64,000 nucleotides of DNA from NCBI GenBank assembly GCA_963971305.1, contig CAXARO010001811.1:1-64000 (forward strand), in the 5' to 3' direction. Positions 6,782 to 24,509 of the stretch are shown piece by piece. Below the pieces are notes generated by a model that saw nothing but the letters and a program-made list of their open reading frames with translations, was not told where the DNA came from and made no database searches. The position numbers and the translations under genes were made by a program. Each line of letters opens with the position of its first letter. The stretch's first letter is position 1. This DNA comes from Arcuatula senhousia (lineage: Eukaryota > Mollusca > Bivalvia > Mytilida > Mytilidae).

Positions 6782-7650
6782 GGGAAACTGGAAAGTTATA
6801 CCTGAATTTTATCTAAATCAACTAGCCCATAAATTCTCAATTTTCTAAATGAACTTAGGTTCACACAAGAATTTAGATAAAAAGATATTTGAGAAGTTGC
6901 CTGTGTTCTACCAAGAAATTATAAAAGCTTGGATTAAAGCTAATGGAGGTGAAACATAAAGCCAAAACAGCTTTTTGGAGATCCGTTAACAAGTTATATG
7001 GGAAAATCAATTTATAAAATTTAATGGACAATGCTTATTCTTTTTAAAAACTGGATCAAAAGTAAATTCATGTACATGAATGATATCCTAAATGAACATG
7101 ATCAAATTTCCGAGGATACCATATTATCTTAACTAATGCAAAAACAAGATTGGATAAGAGAAATTGAAACACTGAAGAAATTAATTCCTAAAGCATTGTT
7201 AAAAACTCTTAAGTCAGAATCTTCTACTAAAACCAAAGTAAATATTCAAAAGATCCCACCATTGAAAATTCTGTTTAAACATCAAATTAACAGAACAATC
7301 AAAGTAAAGGAAATTTATAATCTGCTCATTGGGTATAAAAACTACACTGAAAAAAACATAAGGTTTCTTCAAATGGAATACAATTTTCAACAGCTCAATA
7401 GATTTCTCATTGACGTTGAAATTTATATTTTCATGTCTGCCAGACAACCGCCATAAAATGTTTAAATGTTTAAATGTTTAAACTCTAACACTTTATACTA
7501 CCTAATAATGACCTACTATGTCAATGGAAAGTTAAGAATGACCATATCTGCAATAGATGCAAAATCAAAGAAGACTACGAACACTTCTGCTTAAAATGTC
7601 AATATGTACAAGAGTTTATAACAGCCATACTTGAATTATTGTACAAAATT
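6782..7650 (+). pseudogene. L1/Tx1-like LINE relic, right part (C-terminal region)
   Basis: Resumes the LINE split at 3219. Plus-strand frames read NWKVIPEFYLNQLAHKFS, then KLPVFYQEIIKAWIKANGG (~6895), an open stretch 7136-7456, and finally LCQWKVKNDHICNRCKIKED followed by EHFCLKC (~7520-7600), the Cys/His motif typical of the C-terminus of this LINE class. About 80 residues expected between the two halves are missing, so the relic was also deleted. Frameshifts and stops make it non-functional. Confidence 0.72.
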
Positions 7651-7654
7651 ACAA

Positions 7655-8060
7655 TACCAAAACGCGGGTATAAACGGTTAATTTGGATATGCTATATATC
7701 GATATTTCAAGGAGTAACCTCTCATCAGTAGCATTTGAACCAAAACATTGGAAGATCAAATTCCAAAACAGTTGAAAACGAAAAGTACTCAAAACCAAAA
7801 CGTTCGAACAAGGAAGCCAAATCCAGCACCGAGGATATCGACCATGTGCATTACAAGGAAAGAAACCTGGTGTTTTCATCAATTTTGAATTTAACAATCG
7901 GAAATTTCAGCGACAATATATTAGAAATTTTATGGTAATTCGTGTCAGACAAGTTTGACTACCAGGCTTGTGATTACCCTCGGGGACCTCTGGTCCACCA
8001 GCAGCGGTTATCGCCCAGTGGTTTCAAAATTACAAATACCAAAACGCGGGTATAAACGGT
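7655..8060 (-). repeat. family B hammerhead repeat, one ~373-bp unit plus start of the next
   Basis: The block CAAAACGCGGGTATAAACGG occurs at ~7663 and again at ~8040, so one complete unit and the beginning of a second are present. The same unit occurs twice in tandem at 15098-15690. Each unit holds a hammerhead fold on the minus strand. Near the end of the unit is a box (CCCTCGGGGA, then TCCACCAGCAG) shared with the 358-bp array units. A dispersed insertion of slightly more than one unit is what a circular or tandem RNA intermediate would leave. Confidence 0.7.
7689..7734 (-). ncRNA. type I hammerhead ribozyme motif, family B (complete)
   Basis: Minus strand, 5' to 3': stem I ATGCTA, core CTGATGA, stem II GAGG with loop TTACT and CCTT, core GAA, stem III ATATCGATAT, residue 17 = A, stem I TAGCAT. 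Stem I pairs over 6 bp, stem II over 4 bp including a G-U pair next to the core, and stem III is a palindrome that folds on itself. All invariant core positions are present. Predicted cleavage lies between 7695 and 7694. The layout matches the family A ribozyme with different stem sequences. Confidence 0.75.
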
Positions 8061-8672
8061 TTATACAACCTAGGTTTTGCAAAACATGTTTTAAGTATGA
8101 AAAGTCTAGTAACAGGGTATAAAATGAGGGCAGTTCTTACAAGGAAATCAATATTTTGTAAACATTAATTTTCTTTAGCATTTATAAATCTTACTATGTG
8201 ACAAATGAAAGAAATAAACCTGTAAATATCCAAAAAATATTTCAAAAGGAAATTTTATGGTACAATGTTTATTCACATTCAAACAATAGTGTGTGTGTTA
8301 AAGCAGCAGAGTTGCTCCAAAATATGGGAAACATTTGAGTCCTTTTTTTATTCCCCTTTTCAAAGAAATTTATATTTCACTGTAAATATATTTTGTTCAA
8401 TGTAATGTAAACACTTCAACTGGAACTTATATATTTATTTGTGAGGGGTTTTACCTGTTCAAATTCAGATATTTGACAATAATTTCATGGAAAATATAGA
8501 GCTAAATCCTCATTTACAGACAAACATATTGGATAATTGCCGTATCCACATGGCCAATCTTTTACTTTTACTTTCAGTTTAACCGGAAATAGCACGTGTC
8601 CTATCTAATAATAGTTAAATTAAAACACATCGTTTTTGGAGCACCACTGAACGTTATTGTTATATGTAGCCT
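8061..8672. other. non-coding, no recognised feature
   Basis: AT-rich sequence with no gene, RNA or repeat that I can support. Confidence 0.4.
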
Positions 8673-13125: not shown

Positions 13126-15097
13126 TATCATCTTGTACAGGCCAATTCAATTCAATAATAAAGTACATGTATGTGTTGTCGGCATTGTATAATACATATA
13201 TAAGAACTAAGGAGTATCAGTATGGCAATTGAATATTGTAAATCATCAACATACATTGTAACTTACATGTGAAATACAAAAATATCTAGAATGTGTATAG
13301 CAATGTAAACTTAAGTTCAAAGATAATTACATGAGGATTGTGTAGCCAAACGAACTCGAATTTATTTTATTTGTAACCATTTTACTTGATAATAATACAG
13401 TGTTTGAATGTAATAAAGCGTTCTATCTAATTTATTTATCTATTTATAGTGCTTGTGATTTTTTAACAAAATATGTCATTCATCATGGAATATAGATTTT
13501 TCTTTTTCTTTCATTTTACATTTGTAGCCATTTTATATGATTATTGTACTAAATAAGAATAACAAAATCCTTTGTATTAAATTTCGGTATTTTCATTTAT
13601 GTGTAACTGTTACTAAGAAGAATTTGCTACTTCAACAAAAAAAAATAAATAAAAAAACAAAAACAAATGTGGTTGTTTTAAGTCTTTTGAAAGAGATGTT
13701 AATTAGATGTGGAAAAAGTGTATGCGACAAAAATTACATTCTACAGCAACAACTGGCAATTTTAAAAATCCACAATGGAAGACATTTTTGAATTACTAGT
13801 AGTTACTTTATCATAACCCCATCAAGCTTTATAAAGACCCTGTCTTTAAGCAGAGTTATAACATCATTACTGAAATATAAAAGAATGTTTTTAAAAACCT
13901 TTTTCCTAAAGTGTAGCTCTTTGGAGTTATTGTTTCCAGTTTATTAGATTATTCTTATTATAAAGAACTTTTAATTTCAAAAATATTCAGGCTCGTACTC
14001 CCTTTAATAAGTAACTGCATTACAAATAATTACTGAAAATAAGTAAATCTTTTACTAAGTAAAAAAGTAATTGAATTACTAGGCAATTACTAAGTGATAT
14101 AATTAATTAGTGATACATTTACTTATTATTACTGAAAGGCATTGCTATTACTTGTTTTTTTGACAACTTTAATTACTAGTACTATTACTAGAATTAAGCA
14201 ATTATTAACTTAATTTAAGTATTATCTTTTTAGAATGCAGTTGGTTTTTTTAATAACTTTGCATCTAAATTTATACTCAACTGCTTCTCGACGGTATGGG
14301 TTTTCTGTTTTTCGTGCCCTTATTATATTAAAATATATTTTTTAAAATGTGTTCCAAATTTTAATACATATTTTTATACACAATATTATGGTAGTGGCGG
14401 GAACATGATATAAAATAAGTGAATGTGTATTTGGTTTTATAAATGCACATATTTGGCCTACATCGAAACTGCCTACCGTTGCAAATTAGGACGATTAAGT
14501 GGTCCATTCTCACAAAAAGGTGTGACGAGCCTGTTAAAAAATTATCAGACTAAACAGGAACGAGGGATATGAAAGGCCTACAGTTTTACATTGGATATCT
14601 GAAGACAGTCACAAAATCATATCTGTGCATGATTTTAAACAAAGCAAAGGGTAATAGGAGAAAATAGAAGACAATAGTATATTTCTAACTTCTTGACTAC
14701 TACTACCATTTTCTCTTAAATACTATTAATTATTAATAAACAGGTCATAAAATGAACAGTTCTTATTTCTTTAAATATTTAAACTGCTTTCTCGTCGTAT
14801 TCTATCAAATTAAATGTCGGCGTAACTTCGTTAAACGTATAAATTCTTCATGTCCCAATATCCACTTTATTACATGTGGTCCGAATCACTTCCCGCTGTT
14901 CAATATCTCTTATCGTTTTTTGTCGTTTTTTTTAAGAAATAAGGGGTCAAAGCGGCCAAAAATATATAGTCAATTAAATATCTAATACAGCAAATTATAA
15001 TATTCTTATTTCGACCAAAATTAACTTGTGTTACTTTTAACTCACACACTCCTTGTTAATAATCGATTGAGACGAATATATTACAATTTATGATTAT
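13126..15097. other. non-coding AT-rich stretch with minor repeats
   Basis: Two things stand out. At 13690-13795 there is a fragment (GATGTGGAAAAAGTGTATGC ... ATCCACAATGG) related to the repeats at 53537 and 56505. At 13995-14230 there is low-complexity sequence built from GTAATTACT/AGTAATT words on both strands. The small frames near 14752-14985 carry no family signature. Confidence 0.45.
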
Positions 15098-15132
15098 GAA
15101 TACCAAAACGTGGGTATAAACGGTAAACTTGG

Positions 15133-15177
15133 ATGCTATATATCGATATTTCAAGGAGTATATCTAACCAGTAGCAT
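15133..15177 (-). ncRNA. degenerate family B hammerhead (core destroyed)
   Basis: Stem I strands ATGCTA and TAGCAT, stem III ATATCGATAT and GAA are kept, but the core reads CTGGTTA instead of CTGATGA and one base is lost in the stem II region. Self-cleavage is not expected. Confidence 0.6.
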
Positions 15178-15504
15178 TTTAATCAAAACATTGGAAGGTC
15201 AAATTGCAAAACTGTTGAAAACGAAAAGTACTCAAAACCAAAACGCGCGAACCAGAAAGTCAATTCCAGCACCGAGTATTTAGACCATTACAAGGAAAAA
15301 ACCTGGTATTTTAACCAATTTTGAATTTAAAAATCGGAAATTTCAGCCATAAAATTATTAGAAATTTTATGGTTAATCATGTCAGACAAGTCTGACGACC
15401 TGGCTTGTGATTGCATTCGAGGACCTCTGGTTAACCAGCAGTTACCGCCCAGTTGTTTCAAGATTACAAATACCAAAACGCAGGTATAAACGGTTAATTT
15501 GGAT

Positions 15505-15550
15505 ATGCTATATATCGATATTTCAAGGAGTAACCTCGCATCAGTAGCAT
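15505..15550 (-). ncRNA. family B hammerhead with A9 changed to C
   Basis: All stems match the copy at 7689-7734, but the core reads CTGATGC: the invariant A9 is C. Activity should be strongly reduced or absent by what is known of hammerhead cores. Confidence 0.65.
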
Positions 15551-15690
15551 TTAAATCAAAACATTGGAAGGTCAAATTCAAAAACTGTTGAAAACGAAAA
15601 GTACTCAAAACCAAAACGTTCGAACAAGGAAGCCAAATTTAGCACCAAGGATATCGATCATGTGCATTAACAAGGAGAGAAACCTTTTAG

Positions 15691-15968
15691 ATTATAATTT
15701 TAATCATAACAGCTAGTCTTCATAGGCCCGTTAATCATTCATGTTGAATTTAAGATCCATTTTAGGGCCTTTGTGGCTTCCATTATGTTTATCTTTTGGC
15801 AGCTAAACCATAGACACATAGACCCGTATATTAAACAAAATACAAACCTATGGCTATACCATGTTTTTTTCATAGTTCTTACCTGTTCCGTAAGGAGCAG
15901 TCAAGTATACGCAAGTAAAGTATGAATTGGTTAAAAAAGAACTAACAGATAAGTCGGGGCTCTTGATA
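15691..15968. other. spacer between family B units and the family A array
   Basis: No gene or known repeat seen. It ends directly at the first 358-bp unit. Confidence 0.4.
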
Positions 15969-18900
15969 CACAAATGACAACAAAGTTCCAGACAATAAAT
16001 TTTGCTACGCCTGACGCGCGTTTCGTCTATTCAAGACTCATCAGAGGCGCTCTACCAAAAATATTGAAAATGCCAAACACTGTATAAATATGAAGAGCAT
16101 AGAACAGTATAACAAAAATACCAAACTGGGCAACCAAATTATTACTAAGATAATCAACCTATGTCTGGGGTAGGAAAAACCTTAGGGTTTAGACAATTTT
16201 GAAATTTAGACGGATAATTTAAAGCTTTGATGTATTCTCCAACTCAAAAAGTGTTGGTGCCGGAGCGGGCTAACCTCGGGGAATTTACACTCCACCAGCA
16301 GTGCTAACCTTCACGTGTGTTCGAAATACAAATGACAACAAAGTTCCAGACAATAAATTTTGCTACGCCTGACGCGCGTTTCGTCTATTCAAGACTCATC
16401 AGAGGCGCTCTACCAAAAATATTGAAAATGCCAAACACTGTATAAATATGAAGAGCATAGAACAGTATAACAAAAATACCAAACTGGGCAACCAAATTAT
16501 TACTAAGATAATCAACCTATGTCTGGGGTAGGAAGAACCTTAGGGTTTAGACAATTTTGAAATTTAGACGGATAATTTAAAGCTTTGATGTATTCTCCAA
16601 CTCAAAAAGTGTTGGTGCCGGAGCGGGCTAACCTCGGGGAATTTACACTCCACCAGCAGTGCTAACCTTCACGTGTGTTCGAAATACAAATGACAACAAA
16701 GTTCCAGACAATAAATTTTGCTACGCCTGACGCGCGTTTCGTCTATTCAAGACTCATCAGAGGCGCTCTACCAAAAATATTGAAAATGCCAAACACTGTA
16801 TAAATATGAAGAGCATAGAACAGTATAACAAAAATACCAAACTGGGCAACCAAATTATTACTAAGATAATCAACCTATGTCTGGGGTAGGAAGAACCTTA
16901 GGGTTTAGACAATTTTGAAATTTAGACGGATAATTTAAAGCTTTGATGTATTCTCCAACTCAAAAAGTGTTGGTGCCGGAGCGGGCTAACCTCGGGGAAT
17001 TTACACTCCACCAGCAGTGCTAACCTTCACGTGTGTTCGAAATACAAATGACAACAAAGTTCCAGACAATAAATTTTGCTACGCCTGACGCGCGTTTCGT
17101 CTATTCAAGACTCATCAGAGGCGCTCTACCAAAAATATTGAAAATGCCAAACACTGTATAAATATGAAGAGCATAGAACAGTATAACAAAAATACCAAAC
17201 TGGGCAACCAAATTATTACTAAGATAATCAACCTATGTCTGGGGTAGGAAGAACCTTAGGGTTTAGACAATTTTGAAATTTAGACGGATAATTTAAAGCT
17301 TTGATGTATTCTCCAACTCAAAAAGTGTTGGTGCCGGAGCGGGCTAACCTCGGGGAATTTACACTCCACCAGCAGTGCTAACCTTCACGTGTGTTCGAAA
17401 TACAAATGACAACAAAGTTCCAGACAATAAATTTTGCTACGCCTGACGCGCGTTTCGTCTATTCAAGACTCATCAGAGGCGCTCTACCAAAAATATTGAA
17501 AATGCCAAACACTGTATAAATATGAAGAGCATAGAACAATATAACAAAAATACCAAACTGGGCAACCAAATTATTACTAAGATAATCAACCTATGTCTGG
17601 GGTAGGAAGAACCTTAGGGTTTAGACAATTTTGAAATTTAGACGGATAATTTAAAGCTTTGATGTATTCTCCAACTCAAAAAGTGTTGGTGCCGGAGCGG
17701 GCTAACCTCGGGGAATTTACACTCCACCAGCAGTGCTAACCTTCACGTGTGTTCGAAATACAAATGACAACAAAGTTCCAGACAATAAATTTTGCTACGC
17801 CTGACGCGCGTTTCGTCTATTCAAGACTCATCAGAGGCGCTCTACCAAAAATATTGAAAATGCCAAACACTGTATAAATATGAAGAGCATAGAACAGTAT
17901 AACAAAAATACCAAACTGGGCAACCAAATTATTACTAAGATAATCAACCTATGTCTGGGGTAGGAAGAACCTTAGGGTTTAGACAATTTTGAAATTTAGA
18001 CGGATAATTTAAAGCTTTGATGTATTCTCCAACTCAAAAAGTGTTGGTGCCGGAGCGGGCTAACCTCGGGGAATTTACACTCCACCAGCAGTGCTAACCT
18101 TCACGTGTGTTCGAAATACAAATGACAACAAAGTTCCAGACAATAAATTTTGCTACGCCTGACGCGCGTTTCGTCTATTCAAGACTCATCAGAAGCGCTC
18201 TACCAAAAATATTGAAAATGCCAAACACTGTATAAATATGAAGAGCATAGAACAGTATAACAAAAATACCAAACTGGGCAACCAAATTATTACTAAGATA
18301 ATCAACCTATGTCTGGGGTAGGAAGAACCTTAGGGTTTAGACAATTTTGAAATTTAGACGGATAATTTAAAGCTTTGATGTATTCTCCAACTCAAAAAGT
18401 GTTGGTGCCGGAGCGGGCTAACCTCGGGGAATTTACACTCCACCAGCAGTGCTAACCTTCACGTGTGTTCGAAATACAAATGACAACAAAGTTCCAGACA
18501 ATAAATTTTGCTACGCCTGACGCGCGTTTCGTCTATTCAAGACTCATCAGAGGCGCTCTACCAAAAATATTGAAAATGCCAAACACTGTATAAATATGAA
18601 GAGCATAGAACAGTATAACAAAAATACCAAACTGGGCAACCAAATTATTACTAAGATAATCAACCTATGTCTGGGGTAGGAAGAACCTTAGGGTTTAGAC
18701 AATTTTGAAATTTAGACGGATAATTTAAAGCTTTGATGTATTCTCCAACTCAAAAAGTGTTGGTGCCGGAGCGGGCTAACCTCGGGGAATTTACACTCCA
18801 CCAGCAGTGCTAACCTTCACGTGTGTTCGAAATACAAATGACAACAAAGTTCCAGACAATAAATTTTGCTACGCCTGACGCGCGTTTCGTCTATTCAAGA

Positions 18901-21900
18901 CTCATCAGAGGCGCTCTACCAAAAATATTGAAAATGCCAAACACTGTATAAATATGAAGAGCATAGAACAGTATAACAAAAATACCAAACTGGGCAACCA
19001 AATTATTACTAAGATAATCAACCTATGTCTGGGGTAGGAAGAACCTTAGGGTTTAGACAATTTTGAAATTTAGACGGATAATTTAAAGCTTTGATGTATT
19101 CTCCAACTCAAAAAGTGTTGGTGCCGGAGCGGGCTAACCTCGGGGAATTTACACTCCACCAGCAGTGCTAACCTTCACGTGTGTTCGAAATACAAATGAC
19201 AACAAAGTTCCAGACAATAAATTTTGCTACGCCTGACGCGCGTTTCGTCTATTCAAGACTCATCAGAGGCGCTCTACCAAAAATATTAAAAATGCCAAAC
19301 ACTGTATAAATATGAAGAGCATAGAACAGTATAACAAAAATACCAAACTGGGCAACCAAATTATTACTAAGATAATCAACCTATGTCTGGGGTAGGAAGA
19401 ACCTTAGGGTTTAGACAATTTTGAAATTTAGACGGATAATTTAAAGCTTTGATGTATTCTCCAACTCAAAAAGTGTTGGTGCCGGAGCGGGCTAACCTCG
19501 GGGAATTTACACTCCACCAGCAGTGCTAACCTTCACGTGTGTTCGAAATACAAATGACAACAAAGTTCCAGACAATAAATTTTGCTACGCCTGACGCGCG
19601 TTTCGTCTATTCAAGACTCATCAGAGGCGCTCTACCAAAAATATTGAAAATGCCAAACACTGTATAAATATGAAGAGCATAGAACAGTATAACAAAAATA
19701 CCAAACTGGGCAACCAAATTATTACTAAGATAATCAACCTATGTCTGGGGTAGGAAGAACCTTAGGGTTTAGACAATTTTGAAATTTAGACGGATAATTT
19801 AAAGCTTTGATGTATTCTCCAACTCAAAAAGTGTTGGTGCCGGAGCGGGCTAACCTCGGGGAATTTACACTCCACCAGCAGTGCTAACCTTCACGTGTGT
19901 TCGAAATACAAATGACAACAAAGTTCCAGACAATAAATTTTGCTACGCCTGACGCGCGTTTCGTCTATTCAAGACTCATCAGAGGCGCTCTACCAAAAAT
20001 ATTGAAAATGCCAAACACTGTATAAATATGAAGAGCATAGAACAATATAACAAAAATACCAAACTGGGCAACCAAATTATTACTAAGATAATCAACCTAT
20101 GTCTGGGGTAGGAAGAACCTTAGGGTTTAGACAATTTTGAAATTTAGACGGATAATTTAAAGCTTTGATGTATTCTCCAACTCAAAAAGTGTTGGTGCCG
20201 GAGCGGGCTAACCTCGGGGAATTTACACTCCACCAGCAGTGCTAACCTTCACGTGTGTTCGAAATACAAATGACAACAAAGTTCCAGACAATAAATTTTG
20301 CTACGCCTGACGCGCGTTTCGTCTATTCAAGACTCATCAGAGGCGCTCTACCAAAAATATTGAAAATGCCAAACACTGTATAAATATGAAGAGCATAGAA
20401 CAGTATAACAAAAATACCAAACTGGGCAACCAAATTATTACTAAGATAATCAACCTATGTCTGGGGTAGGAAGAACCTTAGGGTTTAGACAATTTTGAAA
20501 TTTAGACGGATAATTTAAAGCTTTGATGTATTCTCCAACTCAAAAAGTGTTGGTGCCGGAGCGGGCTAACCTCGGGGAATTTACACTCCACCAGCAGTGC
20601 TAACCTTCACGTGTGTTCGAAATACAAATGACAACAAAGTTCCAGACAATAAATTTTGCTACGCCTGACGCGCGTTTCGTCTATTCAAGACTCATCAGAA
20701 GCGCTCTACCAAAAATATTGAAAATGCCAAACACTGTATAAATATGAAGAGCATAGAACAGTATAACAAAAATACCAAACTGGGCAACCAAATTATTACT
20801 AAGATAATCAACCTATGTCTGGGGTAGGAAGAACCTTAGGGTTTAGACAATTTTGAAATTTAGACGGATAATTTAAAGCTTTGATGTATTCTCCAACTCA
20901 AAAAGTGTTGGTGCCGGAGCGGGCTAACCTCGGGGAATTTACACTCCACCAGCAGTGCTAACCTTCACGTGTGTTCGAAATACAAATGACAACAAAGTTC
21001 CAGACAATAAATTTTGCTACGCCTGACGCGCGTTTCGTCTATTCAAGACTCATTAGAGGCGCTCTACCAAAAATATTGAAAATGCCAAACACTGTATAAA
21101 TATGAAGAGCATAGAACAGTATAACAAAAATACCAAACTGGGCAACCAAATTATTACTAAGATAATCAACCTATGTCTGGGGTAGGAAGAACCTTAGGGT
21201 TTAGACAATTTTGAAATTTAGACGGATAATTTAAAGCTTTGATGTATTCTCCAACTCAAAAAATGTTGGTGCCGGAGCGGGCTAACCTCGGGGAATTTAC
21301 ACTCCACCAGCAGTGCTAACCTTCACGTGTGTTCGAAATACAAATGACAACAAAGTTCCAGACAATAAATTTTGCTACGCCTGACGCGCGTTTCGTCTAT
21401 TCAAGACTCATCAGAGGCGCTCTACCAAAAATATTGAAAATGCCAAACACTGTATAAATATGAAGAGCATAGAACAATATAACAAAAATACCAAACTGGG
21501 CAACCAAATTATTACTAAGATAATCAACCTATGTCTGGGGTAGGAAGAACCTTAGGGTTTAGACAATTTTGAAATTTAGACGGATAATTTAAAGCTTTGA
21601 TGTATTCTCCAACTCAAAAAGTGTTGGTGCCGGAGCGGGCTAACCTCGGGGAATTTACACTCCACCAGCAGTGCTAACCTTCACGTGTGTTCGAAATACA
21701 AATGACAACAAAGTTCCAGACAATAAATTTTGCTACGCCTGACGCGCGTTTCGTCTATTCAAGACTCATCAGAGGCGCTCTACCAAAAATATTGAAAATG
21801 CCAAACACTGTATAAATATGAAGAGCATAGAACAGTATAACAAAAATACCAAACTGGGCAACCAAATTATTACTAAGATAATCAACCTATGTCTGGGGTA

Positions 21901-24501
21901 GGAAGAACCTTAGGGTTTAGACAATTTTGAAATTTAGACGGATAATTTAAAGCTTTGATGTATTCTCCAACTCAAAAAGTGTTGGTGCCGGAGCGGGCTA
22001 ACCTCGGGGAATTTACACTCCACCAGCAGTGCTAACCTTCACGTGTGTTCGAAATACAAATGACAACAAAGTTCCAGACAATAAATTTTGCTACGCCTGA
22101 CGCGCGTTTCGTCTATTCAAGACTCATCAGAAGCGCTCTACCAAAAATATTGAAAATGCCAAACACTGTATAAATATGAAGAGCATAGAACAGTATAACA
22201 AAAATACCAAACTGGGCAACCAAATTATTACTAAGATAATCAACCTATGTCTGGGGTAGGAAGAACCTTAGGGTTTAGACAATTTTGAAATTTAGACGGA
22301 TAATTTAAAGCTTTGATGTATTCTCCAACTCAAAAAGTGTTGGTGCCGGAGCGGGCTAACCTCGGGGAATTTACACTCCACCAGCAGTGCTAACCTTCAC
22401 GTGTGTTCGAAATACAAATGACAACAAAGTTCCAGACAATAAATTTTGCTACGCCTGACGCGCGTTTCGTCTATTCAAGACTCATCAGAGGCGCTCTACC
22501 AAAAATATTGAAAATGCCAAACACTGTATAAATATGAAGAGCATAGAACAGTATAACAAAAATACCAAACTGGGCAACCAAATTATTACTAAGATAATCA
22601 ACCTATGTCTGGGGTAGGAAGAACCTTAGGGTTTAGACAATTTTGAAATTTAGACGGATAATTTAAAGCTTTGATGTATTCTCCAACTCAAAAAGTGTTG
22701 GTGCCGGAGCGGGCTAACCTCGGGGAATTTACACTCCACCAGCAGTGCTAACCTTCACGTGTGTTCGAAATACAAATGACAACAAAGTTCCAGACAATAA
22801 ATTTTGCTACGCCTGACGCGCGTTTCGTCTATTCAAGACTCATCAGAGGCGCTCTACCAAAAATATTGAAAATGCCAAACACTGTATAAATATGAAGAGC
22901 ATAGAACAGTATAACAAAAATACCAAACTGGGCAACCAAATTATTACTAAGATAATCAACCTATGTCTGGGGTAGGAAGAACCTTAGGGTTTAGACAATT
23001 TTAAAATTTAGACGGATAATTTAAAGCTTTGATGTATTCTCCAACTCAAAAAGTGTTGGTGCCGGAGCGGGCTAACCTCGGGGAATTTACACTCCACCAG
23101 CAGTGCTAACCTTCACGTGTGTTCGAAATACAAATGACAACAAAGTTCCAGACAATAAATTTTGCTACGCCTGACGCGCGTTTCGTCTATTCAAGACTCA
23201 TCAGAGGCGCTCTACCAAAAATATTGAAAATGCCAAACACTGTATAAATATGAAGAGCATAGAACAGTATAACAAAAATACCAAACTGGGCAACCAAATT
23301 ATTACTAAGATAATCAACCTATGTCTGGGGTAGGAAGAACCTTAGGGTTTAGACAATTTTGAAATTTAGACGGATAATTTAAAGCTTTGATGTATTCTCC
23401 AACTCAAAAAGTGTTGGTGCCGGAGCGGGCTAACCTCGGGGAATTTACACTCCACCAGCAGTGCTAACCTTCACGTGTGTTCGAAATACAAATGACAACA
23501 AAGTTCCAGACAATAAATTTTGCTACGCCTGACGCGCGTTTCGTCTATTCAAGACTCATCAGAGGCGCTCTACCAAAAATATTGAAAATGCCAAACACTG
23601 TATAAATATGAAGAGCATAGAACAGTATAACAAAAATACCAAACTGGGCAACCAAATTATTACTAAGATAATCAACCTATGTCTGGGGTAGGAAGAACCT
23701 TAGGGTTTAGACAATTTTAAAATTTAGACGGATAATTTAAAGCTTTGATGTATTCTCCAACTCAAAAAGTGTTGGTGCCGGAGCGGGCTAACCTCGGGGA
23801 ATTTACACTCCACCAGCAGTGCTAACCTTCACGTGTGTTCGAAATACAAATGACAACAAAGTTCCAGACAATAAATTTTGCTACGCCTGACGCGCGTTTC
23901 GTCTATTCAAGACTCATCAGAGGCGCTCTACCAAAAATATTGAAAATGCCAAACACTGTATAAATATGAAGAGCATAGAACAGTATAACAAAAATACCAA
24001 ACTGGGCAACCAAATTATTACTAAGATAATCAACCTATGTCTGGGGTAGGAAGAACCTTAGGGTTTAGACAATTTTGAAATTTAGACGGATAATTTAAAG
24101 CTTTGATGTATTCTCCAACTCAAAAAGTGTTGGTGCCGGAGCGGGCTAACCTCGGGGAATTTACACTCCACCAGCAGTGCTAACCTTCACGTGTGTTCGA
24201 AATACAAATGACAACAAAGTTCCAGACAATAAATTTTGCTACGCCTGACGCGCGTTTCGTCTATTCAAGACTCATCAGAGGCGCTCTACCAAAAATATTG
24301 AAAATGCCAAACACTGTATAAATATGAAGAGCATAGAACAGTATAACAAAAATACCAAACTGGGCAACCAAATTATTACTAAGATAATCAACCTATGTCT
24401 GGGGTAGGAAGAACCTTAGGGTTTAGACAATTTTGAAATTTAGACGGATAATTTAAAGCTTTGATGTATTCTCCAACTCAAAAAGTGTTGGTGCCGGAGC
24501 G
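15969..24501 (-). repeat. 358-bp hammerhead-ribozyme satellite array, 23.8 units (family A)
   Basis: CAAATGACAAC recurs at 15971 and every 358 bases exactly, up to 24205, with no insertion or deletion; the last unit stops at ~24501. Units are almost identical: differences are single substitutions shared by few copies. Each unit contains, on the minus strand, a complete hammerhead ribozyme and, about 70-100 bases upstream on the plus strand, a box CCTCGGGGA ... TCCACCAGCAG shared with family B. The period is not a multiple of 3 and no protein is encoded. Known: animal retrozymes are tandem units of a few hundred bases with type I hammerheads that give small circular RNAs; assignment to them is inference. 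Homogeneity implies recent amplification or conversion. Assembly collapse could alter copy number. Confidence 0.95.
16366..16407 (-). ncRNA. type I hammerhead ribozyme, family A (copy 2 shown; 24 in array)
   Basis: Minus strand, 5' to 3': stem I CGCCT (16407-16403), core CTGATGA (16402-16396), stem II GTCT, loop TGAAT, AGAC (16395-16383), core GAA (16382-16380), stem III ACGCGCGT (16379-16372), C17 (16371), stem I AGGCG (16370-16366). Stem I extends outward by GTTTT/CAAAA-type pairing beyond an internal loop, the place where type I ribozymes make loop contacts. Cleavage is predicted just 3' of C17. The C17 positions are 16013 + 358(n-1), for n = 1 to 24, ending at 24247. Copies 7, 14 and 18 have a G-U pair in stem I; copy 15 has core position G5 changed to A (21052-21056 region) and should be inactive. 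Confidence 0.92.
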
Positions 24502-24509
24502 AACGATAT

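What the first reader, a model, noticed from the sequence alone, without database searches (positions are those of the whole stretch)
15969..24501. A satellite array in which every one of 24 units carries a hammerhead ribozyme
The 358-bp unit is not plain satellite: its minus strand holds a complete type I hammerhead (CTGATGA, 4-bp stem II, GAA, palindromic stem III, C17, 5-bp stem I). Transcription of the minus strand should yield unit-length RNAs that can circularise, as described for animal retrozymes. An 8.5-kb uninterrupted run of active-looking units is a potential source locus.
Basis: partly seen in the sequence, partly recalled or inferred. Interest (0 to 1): 0.88.

Follow-up and report, generated by a model that had tools for sequence, protein, structure and literature searches.

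The report
Mussel-type retrozyme array with PLE-like hairpin
The repeat array is a jumping RNA element whose units each carry a self-cutting ribozyme; it seems to have been copied into the genome from one small RNA, starting at a fixed point beside an RNA hairpin that it shares with a particular reverse-transcriptase gene, which suggests which enzyme moves these elements.

Summary
The array is real: 358 bp x 23.8 at 15970-24501, with an Rfam type I hammerhead on the minus strand. 20 of 24 units pass Rfam's cut-off, 3 miss it narrowly (33.8 vs 34 bits), and 1 (unit 15, 28.9 bits) has a mutated core. It is an animal non-LTR retrozyme, a known kind (mussel retrozymes of 350-390 bp are published).

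New here is how such arrays arise. Of 47 copies with a covered 3' end, 45 end at the same RNA site (S, ...TGTATTT|C, about 47 nt 3' of the cleavage site), while 48 5' ends spread uniformly round the unit (KS p 0.66). Private alleles within arrays are mostly in all units or in one, as expected if one monomer was copied repeatedly.

Just 3' of S lies a 17-bp hairpin. It recurs at the same spacing (13-14 nt) in a Penelope-like element (PLE) of this genome with GIY-YIG ahead of RT, whose copies also end at the matching S (14 of 14 found; 6 of 20 places held none). It recurs in a second retrozyme-like family in the window. Seven pairs show compensatory changes among the three families.

Best reading: the retrozyme parasitises this PLE's reverse transcriptase. 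No RNA or enzyme evidence was available.

The parts
15970..24501 (-). Retrozyme array, 23.8 units of 358 bp; RNA sense is the minus strand, so the RNA 5' end of the array is at 24501 and its 3' end (inferred reverse-transcription start) at 15970
16007..16050 (-). Type I hammerhead of unit 1 (repeats every 358 bp to 24241-24284; 20 of 24 at or above the Rfam cut-off); predicted cleavage 3' of the C at 16013
16268..16309 (-). 17-bp hairpin shared with a PLE, first complete copy (23 copies in the array, last 24144-24185; unit 24 is truncated before it)
15965..15970 (-). 3' junction of the array (site S, RNA ...TTGTTGTCATTTGT then flank); same end, within 12 nt, as in 44 other mapped copies
24501..24502 (-). 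5' junction of the array (RNA unit position 61); 5' ends differ from copy to copy
7644..8064 (-). Copy 1 of a second retrozyme-like family (X, about 382-bp period) with the same hairpin and a repeated tail
7972..8012 (-). Hairpin of family X (30.3 bits with a model that was built without it); 13 nt 3' of its ...AATTTT end
7701..7728 (-). Hammerhead-like core of family X (CTGATGA...GAAATATC, flanked by ATGCTA/TAGCAT); below Rfam's cut-off or unmatched, found by pattern
15093..15685 (-). Copy 2 of family X, about 1.6 units, diverged

Best explanation
The array is one insertion of a non-autonomous retrozyme. Minus-strand RNA is cut by the hammerhead into 358-nt units that close into circles (inferred from the published mussel work). 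A Penelope-like element of the kind with GIY-YIG ahead of RT binds the RNA at a conserved hairpin and starts cDNA synthesis internally, at a fixed site S 13-14 nt 5' of the hairpin and about 47 nt 3' of the cleavage site, primed at a genomic nick. It runs round the circle until it falls off at random, giving arrays with a fixed 3' end, a random 5' end and identical units. Shown here: the hammerhead motif, the fixed 3' and free 5' ends, arrays whose units share private alleles, and the hairpin and S shared with the PLE. Inferred: circle as template, protein binding to the hairpin, nick priming, and that this PLE does it.
For: Fixed end: 45 of 47 covered 3' ends within unit position 0-12 (mode 5); 48 5' ends uniform, KS p 0.66. 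One monomer: in 11 arrays with 3 or more units, 7 private alleles (6 arrays) are in every unit, 35 in one unit, 4 in two or three units; all 23 full window units have a substitution absent from 86 units of 34 other arrays, and a deletion seen in 1 of those 86. Partner: a blast of the unit against 22 GIY-YIG loci gave one hit below E 0.01 (7e-6). Anchored at their separately mapped S sites, retrozyme and PLE align with score 27 against 8.3 +/- 1.4 (0 of 5000 Markov shuffles; 0 of 2391 other PLE windows). PLE 3' ends: 14 of 14 found at the matching site, 6 of 20 predicted places held no PLE. Hairpin: 17/17, 17/17 and 16/17 pairs in retrozyme, PLE and family X, 7 pairs changed on both sides, same bulges. 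GIY-YIG ahead of RT. Precedent: a PLE enzyme (PAc) starts RT internally in vitro and its minimal RNA reaches beyond the start (PMC11167929, parts 1-2 of 4 read).
Against: The partner PLE shows no Rfam hammerhead. Target-site duplications are absent or unclear at most copies (5 of 45 below p 0.05, about 2 expected by chance). Two of 47 copies end elsewhere (C8a, C8c). Flanks are not fully independent: C5b, C8c and C12b lie in copies of one repeat, and a few other pairs share shorter repeats. L114 was picked because it resembled the unit, so the test is partly conditioned on that hit; the tail 5' of S alone is weaker (16 of 24 identical, 3 of 3725 PLE positions as good). The P1 covariation is largely one split between two lineages. 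The unit as a whole is not unusually structured. Block duplication inside the window array shows that DNA-level amplification also occurs. No RNA data. A linear multimer from an unsampled homogeneous array could be the template.
Confidence: 0.7

Rival explanations
1. The hairpin and S are inherited: the retrozyme arose by deletion from such a PLE, but is now moved by another enzyme (a LINE or another PLE).
For: Shared tail and hairpin are also what descent predicts; this genome holds many other GIY-YIG matches (140, of which few were examined).
Against: Helix P1 keeps pairing while its sequence differs and S-to-hairpin spacing is kept in three families, which suggests ongoing selection for a function in copying. 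Among the 43 sources (window, 8 hammerhead loci, 34 GIY-YIG loci) only copies of the three families scored; nine of those loci span the leader of other GIY-YIG elements by layout (L107-L113, L115, L116) and gave none. LINE partners were not searched for.
Confidence: 0.15
2. Ordinary satellite: arrays grew by unequal crossing-over and were spread by segmental duplication; the hammerhead is a passenger.
For: Block duplication of variant units inside the window array; homogeneous units; three copies lie in one repeat family.
Against: 45 of 47 copies end at one site with free 5' ends and no two mapped copies share both junctions; private alleles are in all units or in one, rarely between.
Confidence: 0.04
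3. Variant of the best reading: the template is unprocessed linear multimeric RNA, with no circle; the hammerhead acts only after or outside transposition.
For: In PAc, hammerhead mutants did not alter insertion in vitro (PMC11167929). The PLE itself occurs in tandem with period about 3385 without an Rfam hammerhead.
Against: Private alleles in every unit of six arrays of 4-23 units need a single-monomer stage somewhere; circles are abundant in mussel RNA (PMC7229834).
Confidence: 0.25
4. The hairpin is an internal promoter or a translation or export signal common to both elements, not an RT-recognition site.
For: In the PLE it ends 25 nt upstream of the first in-frame ATG.
Against: Compensatory base pairs argue for RNA structure; it is anchored 13-14 nt from the inferred RT start in three families.
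Confidence: 0.12

Closest known systems
Animal non-LTR retrozymes, especially Mytilus galloprovincialis (Cervera and de la Pena 2020, PMC7229834)
   Same: Type I hammerhead, tandem units of 350-390 bp, low GC, many copies, PLEs in the same genome
   Different: The parts read there (1-3 of 6 and the discussion) give no fixed RT start, no recognition hairpin and no named partner; PLE mobilisation is proposed from shared hammerheads, tandem layout and co-occurrence
PLE with internal RT initiation, PAc of Anolis (PMC11167929)
   Same: RT starts inside the RNA, genomic copies end at that start, the minimal RNA extends 3' of the start
   Different: PAc is autonomous and has its own hammerhead; its start lies 111-118 nt into the ORF in an AC-rich stem loop; retrozymes are not mentioned (0 occurrences)
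PLEs with permuted domains (Naiad/Chlamys type; Craig et al. 2021, not held, recalled)
   Same: GIY-YIG ahead of a PLE-type RT in one ORF
   Different: Clade assignment not tested by a tree; the name is recalled
SINE-LINE partnerships (recalled)
   Same: Non-autonomous element shares the recognition structure of an autonomous one
   Different: Here the start is internal on a probably circular, ribozyme-made template and yields tandem arrays

Membership tests
Animal non-LTR retrozyme | Type I hammerhead in each unit | tested here: met
   20 of 24 units above the Rfam cut-off, 24 of 24 detected
Animal non-LTR retrozyme | Tandem units of about 150-450 bp, GC under 50%, dispersed copies | tested here: met
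   358 bp, GC 39.1%, copies on many contigs
Animal non-LTR retrozyme | Self-cleavage and circular RNA in tissue | not testable with these tools
   No RNA reads or bench
Animal non-LTR retrozyme | Target-site duplications, when present, longer than 4 bp | tested here: inconclusive
   5 of 45 copies below p 0.05, about 2 expected; a 10-bp one at C6c (p 0.015); most none
Animal non-LTR retrozyme | Autonomous PLEs in the same genome | tested here: met
   140 GIY-YIG matches; RT shown for the two elements tested
Animal non-LTR retrozyme | Mobilised by a PLE reverse transcriptase (proposed in the literature) | tested here: inconclusive
   Shared S and hairpin support it; no enzyme assay
PLE with N-terminal GIY-YIG (proposed partner) | GIY-YIG ahead of a PLE-type RT | tested here: met
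   GIY-YIG at residues 14-106 of the L127 piece, homology to the RT of L107 at 395-860, E 9e-13; RVT_1 itself not significant in this protein but precomputed for some relatives
PLE with N-terminal GIY-YIG (proposed partner) | Hammerhead near the leader (reported for PLEs) | tested here: not met
   No Rfam hammerhead in L114; a degenerate one cannot be excluded

The most novel reading that the evidence does not exclude
Animal retrozymes in general are SINE-like parasites of PLEs with a leading GIY-YIG domain: a conserved bulged hairpin is the ticket by which the PLE protein takes a ribozyme-made RNA circle and starts cDNA at a fixed internal site, so each tandem array is a frozen record of one rolling reverse-transcription event.
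Probability: 0.45. Interest if true: 0.87.

Novelty: new member of a known kind. Interest (0 to 1): 0.72.

Why it matters
Which enzyme moves hammerhead-bearing animal retrozymes, and why they sit in tandem arrays, is open in the papers read, which propose PLEs from co-occurrence and shared hammerheads. A shared hairpin and a shared start site give a concrete enzyme, a 42-nt RNA to test, and a signature that can be looked for in any animal genome. It also reads arrays that could pass for satellite DNA as single reverse-transcription events, which would make template choice and processivity measurable from genome sequence.

Tried and rejected
Rejected: a tRNA-like segment with Pol III boxes at unit positions 289-358, suspected by eye; ARAGORN found no tRNA in the array, one weak box-A match and no box-B match at that place (consensus boxes recalled), and the segment turned out to be the hairpin. 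Rejected: a common 5' end at RNA position 309, suggested by rows; direct mapping showed it to be a cut of that search. Rejected: the unit as unusually structured RNA; fold z-score +0.82. Inconclusive: target-site duplications. The bacterial promoter scan has no bearing on an animal genome. One search ended in a memory error before its alignment; one search did that comparison. Species not determined: the named relatives of the PLE protein include Pinctada imbricata and Mytilus trossulus, so I take it as a bivalve.

Sampling: the close copies are the 39 arrays that I could group from the listed rows of a capped search (40 of 629 candidates scored) plus the window; the diverged ones are 8 of 64 hammerhead hits. 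They are not a random sample and favour copies with a full unit. Dropped before counts: C2b has no covered 3' end (47 of 48 counted); C8a, C8c and C2b were left out of the duplication test (45 of 48). Units of 35 of the 40 close arrays entered; the first unit of C6d includes 6 flank bases and last units of C14a and C5e are overlong, which inflates their differences. The 11 loci taken as relatives of the partner PLE (L114, L117-L126) were chosen by the range of their GIY-YIG match; GIY-YIG ahead of RT was checked only for L114/L127, and a leading GIY-YIG also for L119/L128.

Literature: seen were PMC7229834 (outline, parts 1-3 of 6, discussion), PMC11167929 (parts 1-2 of 4, passages), passages of PMC7761336 and PMC11722881; the rest as search listings. 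That the hairpin or the partner is not in print rests only on those searches of an open-licence library; Craig et al. 2021 was not held.
Full report
OBSERVATION. The array spans 15970-24501 with period 358 and 23.8 copies. Rfam's type I hammerhead model matches the minus strand of 20 of 24 units above its cut-off and all 24 at E <= 0.1. Four units are weakened: units 7, 14 and 18 by one stem I change (33.8 bits) and unit 15 by a core change (28.9 bits). Full units differ by 0-2 bases from their majority. The window lies on C1763 of a 1.036-Gb assembly, in which 62 of 64 listed matches to the hammerhead family exceed the cut-off (74 of 145145 candidates scored, so a lower bound). The 8 best that were cut out all contain relatives of this unit (best segments 81-96% identical; weaker segments down to 75%).

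KNOWN KIND. Cervera and de la Pena 2020 (PMC7229834) describe about 5000 type I hammerheads in Mytilus galloprovincialis, usually in repeats of 350-390 bp, expressed as circular RNA, and name such elements non-LTR retrozymes. The window array fits that description. They propose PLEs as movers because both carry type I hammerheads, occur in tandem and co-exist.

ENDS OF THE ARRAYS. The unit matched loci on many contigs. I mapped ends of 48 copies: 40 close ones including the window, and 8 diverged ones. In RNA sense, 45 of the 47 with a covered 3' end stop at unit position 0-12 (mode 5, that is ...TTGTTGTCATTTGTATTTC|), where part of the spread is chance matching of the flank. The two exceptions are C8a (279) and C8c (228). 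The 5' ends take values from 7 to 353 and fit a uniform distribution (KS p 0.66). Flanks mostly differ: among 150-bp flanks, C5b, C8c and C12b lie in copies of one repeat and a few other pairs share shorter repeats, but no two mapped copies share both junctions. The end is 43-55 nt (mode 48) 3' of the predicted cleavage site, so it is not an end made by the ribozyme. A fixed 3' end and free 5' end is what target-primed reverse transcription leaves; more than one unit needs a circle or a multimer as template. Clear target-site duplications are few (5 of 45 below p 0.05, about 2 expected).

ONE MONOMER PER ARRAY. Among 109 full units of 35 arrays, the mean difference is 3.6 between arrays and 0-2 within most; C14a (3.3), C5e (8) and C6d (10) are higher, at least partly because end units took in flank or are overlong. 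In 11 arrays of three or more units, alleles private among the sampled arrays sit in all units (7 alleles, 6 arrays), in one unit (35), in two (2) or in three (2); five arrays have no private fixed allele. The two at three copies are both in the window array, whose variant order also shows block duplication. All 23 full window units carry a substitution absent from 86 units elsewhere and a deletion found once elsewhere. Gradual homogenisation would leave intermediate frequencies; repeated copying of one circle predicts all-or-one. A linear multimer from an unsampled homogeneous array remains possible.

A PARTNER. A GIY-YIG search gave 140 matches (150 of 1106 candidates scored). A blast of the unit against 22 such loci gave one hit below E 0.01: 28 bases, 93%, E 7e-6, in L114. 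That element has GIY-YIG ahead of a PLE-type RT (RT-like motifs) and an open frame of 1045 aa; relatives of its leader lie in tandem with period about 3385 at several places (40 of 3023 candidates scored). RVT_1 itself was not significant in this protein; RT identity rests on blastp to the PLE L107 (9e-13) and on RVT_1 precomputed for some relatives. The hit marks a hairpin present in 8 of 11 loci fetched as likely relatives: L122 aligns only further into the ORF, L120 and L124 do not align with this region. Downstream copies of the PLE's leader stop at ...TGTTATTACCTTTATTT|AC: of 20 predicted places 14 held the PLE and all 14 end within reference positions 304-310; three more in L127 and L128 end at 307, 308 and 314. 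Two PLE copies (L117, L123) begin a few bases after this site.

SAME START, SAME HAIRPIN. Placing retrozyme and PLE at their separately mapped start sites gives a local alignment score of 27; other PLE windows give 8.1 +/- 1.5 (maximum 20, n 2391) and Markov shuffles 8.3 +/- 1.4 (maximum 16, n 5000). L114 had been picked for its similarity, so this test is partly conditioned; the 24 nt just 5' of S alone agree at 16 positions, as good as 3 of 3725 PLE positions. Each sequence folds on its own into the same bulged hairpin. On 10 sequences 95.3% of pair cells form standard pairs, against 29-61% when the partners are slid, and 5 of 17 pairs change on both sides; the shuffle control is beaten on cells paired, cells with double change and covariation score (0 of 500 each) but not on numbers of such pairs (108 of 500) or pair types (280 of 500). 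The changes mostly reflect one split between two lineages, counted several times. A model built from these found a third family it had not seen: window 7972-8012 (30.3 bits), L106 (27.0), L118 (24.1). Its window hairpin pairs 16 of 17; over the three families 7 of 17 pairs show double changes while the unpaired R, GC and U are kept. The spacer from start site to hairpin is 14, 13 and 13 nt (read from the sequences). Among the 43 sources the only other match at E <= 1 is a weak one in L008 (14.1 bits), itself a retrozyme locus.

MECHANISM. PMC11167929 shows for the PLE PAc that RT begins inside the RNA, that genomic copies end there, and that the minimal RNA reaches 3' of the start. The retrozyme has this layout: hammerhead, about 47 nt, start, 14 nt, hairpin. 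The simplest reading is that the PLE protein recognises the hairpin on retrozyme RNA, primes at a nick and reads round the circle. Binding, priming and the circle are inferred, not shown. The partner PLE has no Rfam hammerhead, which is against a simple shared-ribozyme link. A retrozyme that merely descends from such a PLE is the main rival; LINEs were not examined.

VERDICT. Observation confirmed with a correction (23 of 24 intact cores); interpretation partly supported. The element is a new member of a known kind. The fixed start and the shared hairpin were not met in the searches and papers named in Tried and rejected, and they make the question of the mover directly testable.

Noticed in passing
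window 7644-8064 and 15093-15685, minus strand: A second retrozyme-like family (X) with its own hammerhead-like core and the same hairpin; the second copy lies about 285 bp from the array. Genome-wide search did not complete.
   Followed up: partly
window 15970-24501: All 7 distinct variants inside the array are GC-to-AT transitions, 6 C-to-T and 1 G-to-A in RNA sense, none at CpG; in ten other arrays 4 of 31 are (Fisher p 2.6e-5). Could be deamination, RNA-level change or assembly error.
   Followed up: partly
window 17402-22413: Variants at unit positions 138 and 77 recur in units 5/7, 12/14 and 16/18, a sign of block duplication within the array.
   Followed up: partly
window 55503, plus strand: A PLE-type minimal hammerhead by pattern, CTGATGAAGGACATACGAATGTCCGAAATATC, not an Rfam match at the gathering score.
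   Followed up: no
window 32733-53535: A large 171-bp satellite (about 119 copies in three blocks) with no Rfam match at the gathering score.
   Followed up: no
L114:2969-3063: The leader of the partner PLE holds an inverted repeat (GATCGCAATGG...CCATTGCGATC, read) upstream of S, where other PLEs carry a hammerhead; no Rfam family of weight. Possibly an undescribed structure.
   Followed up: partly
C5b, C8c, C12b (L041, L060, L078): Three retrozyme copies lie in copies of the same repeat, one of them in the other orientation; could be target preference or chance in an abundant repeat.
   Followed up: no
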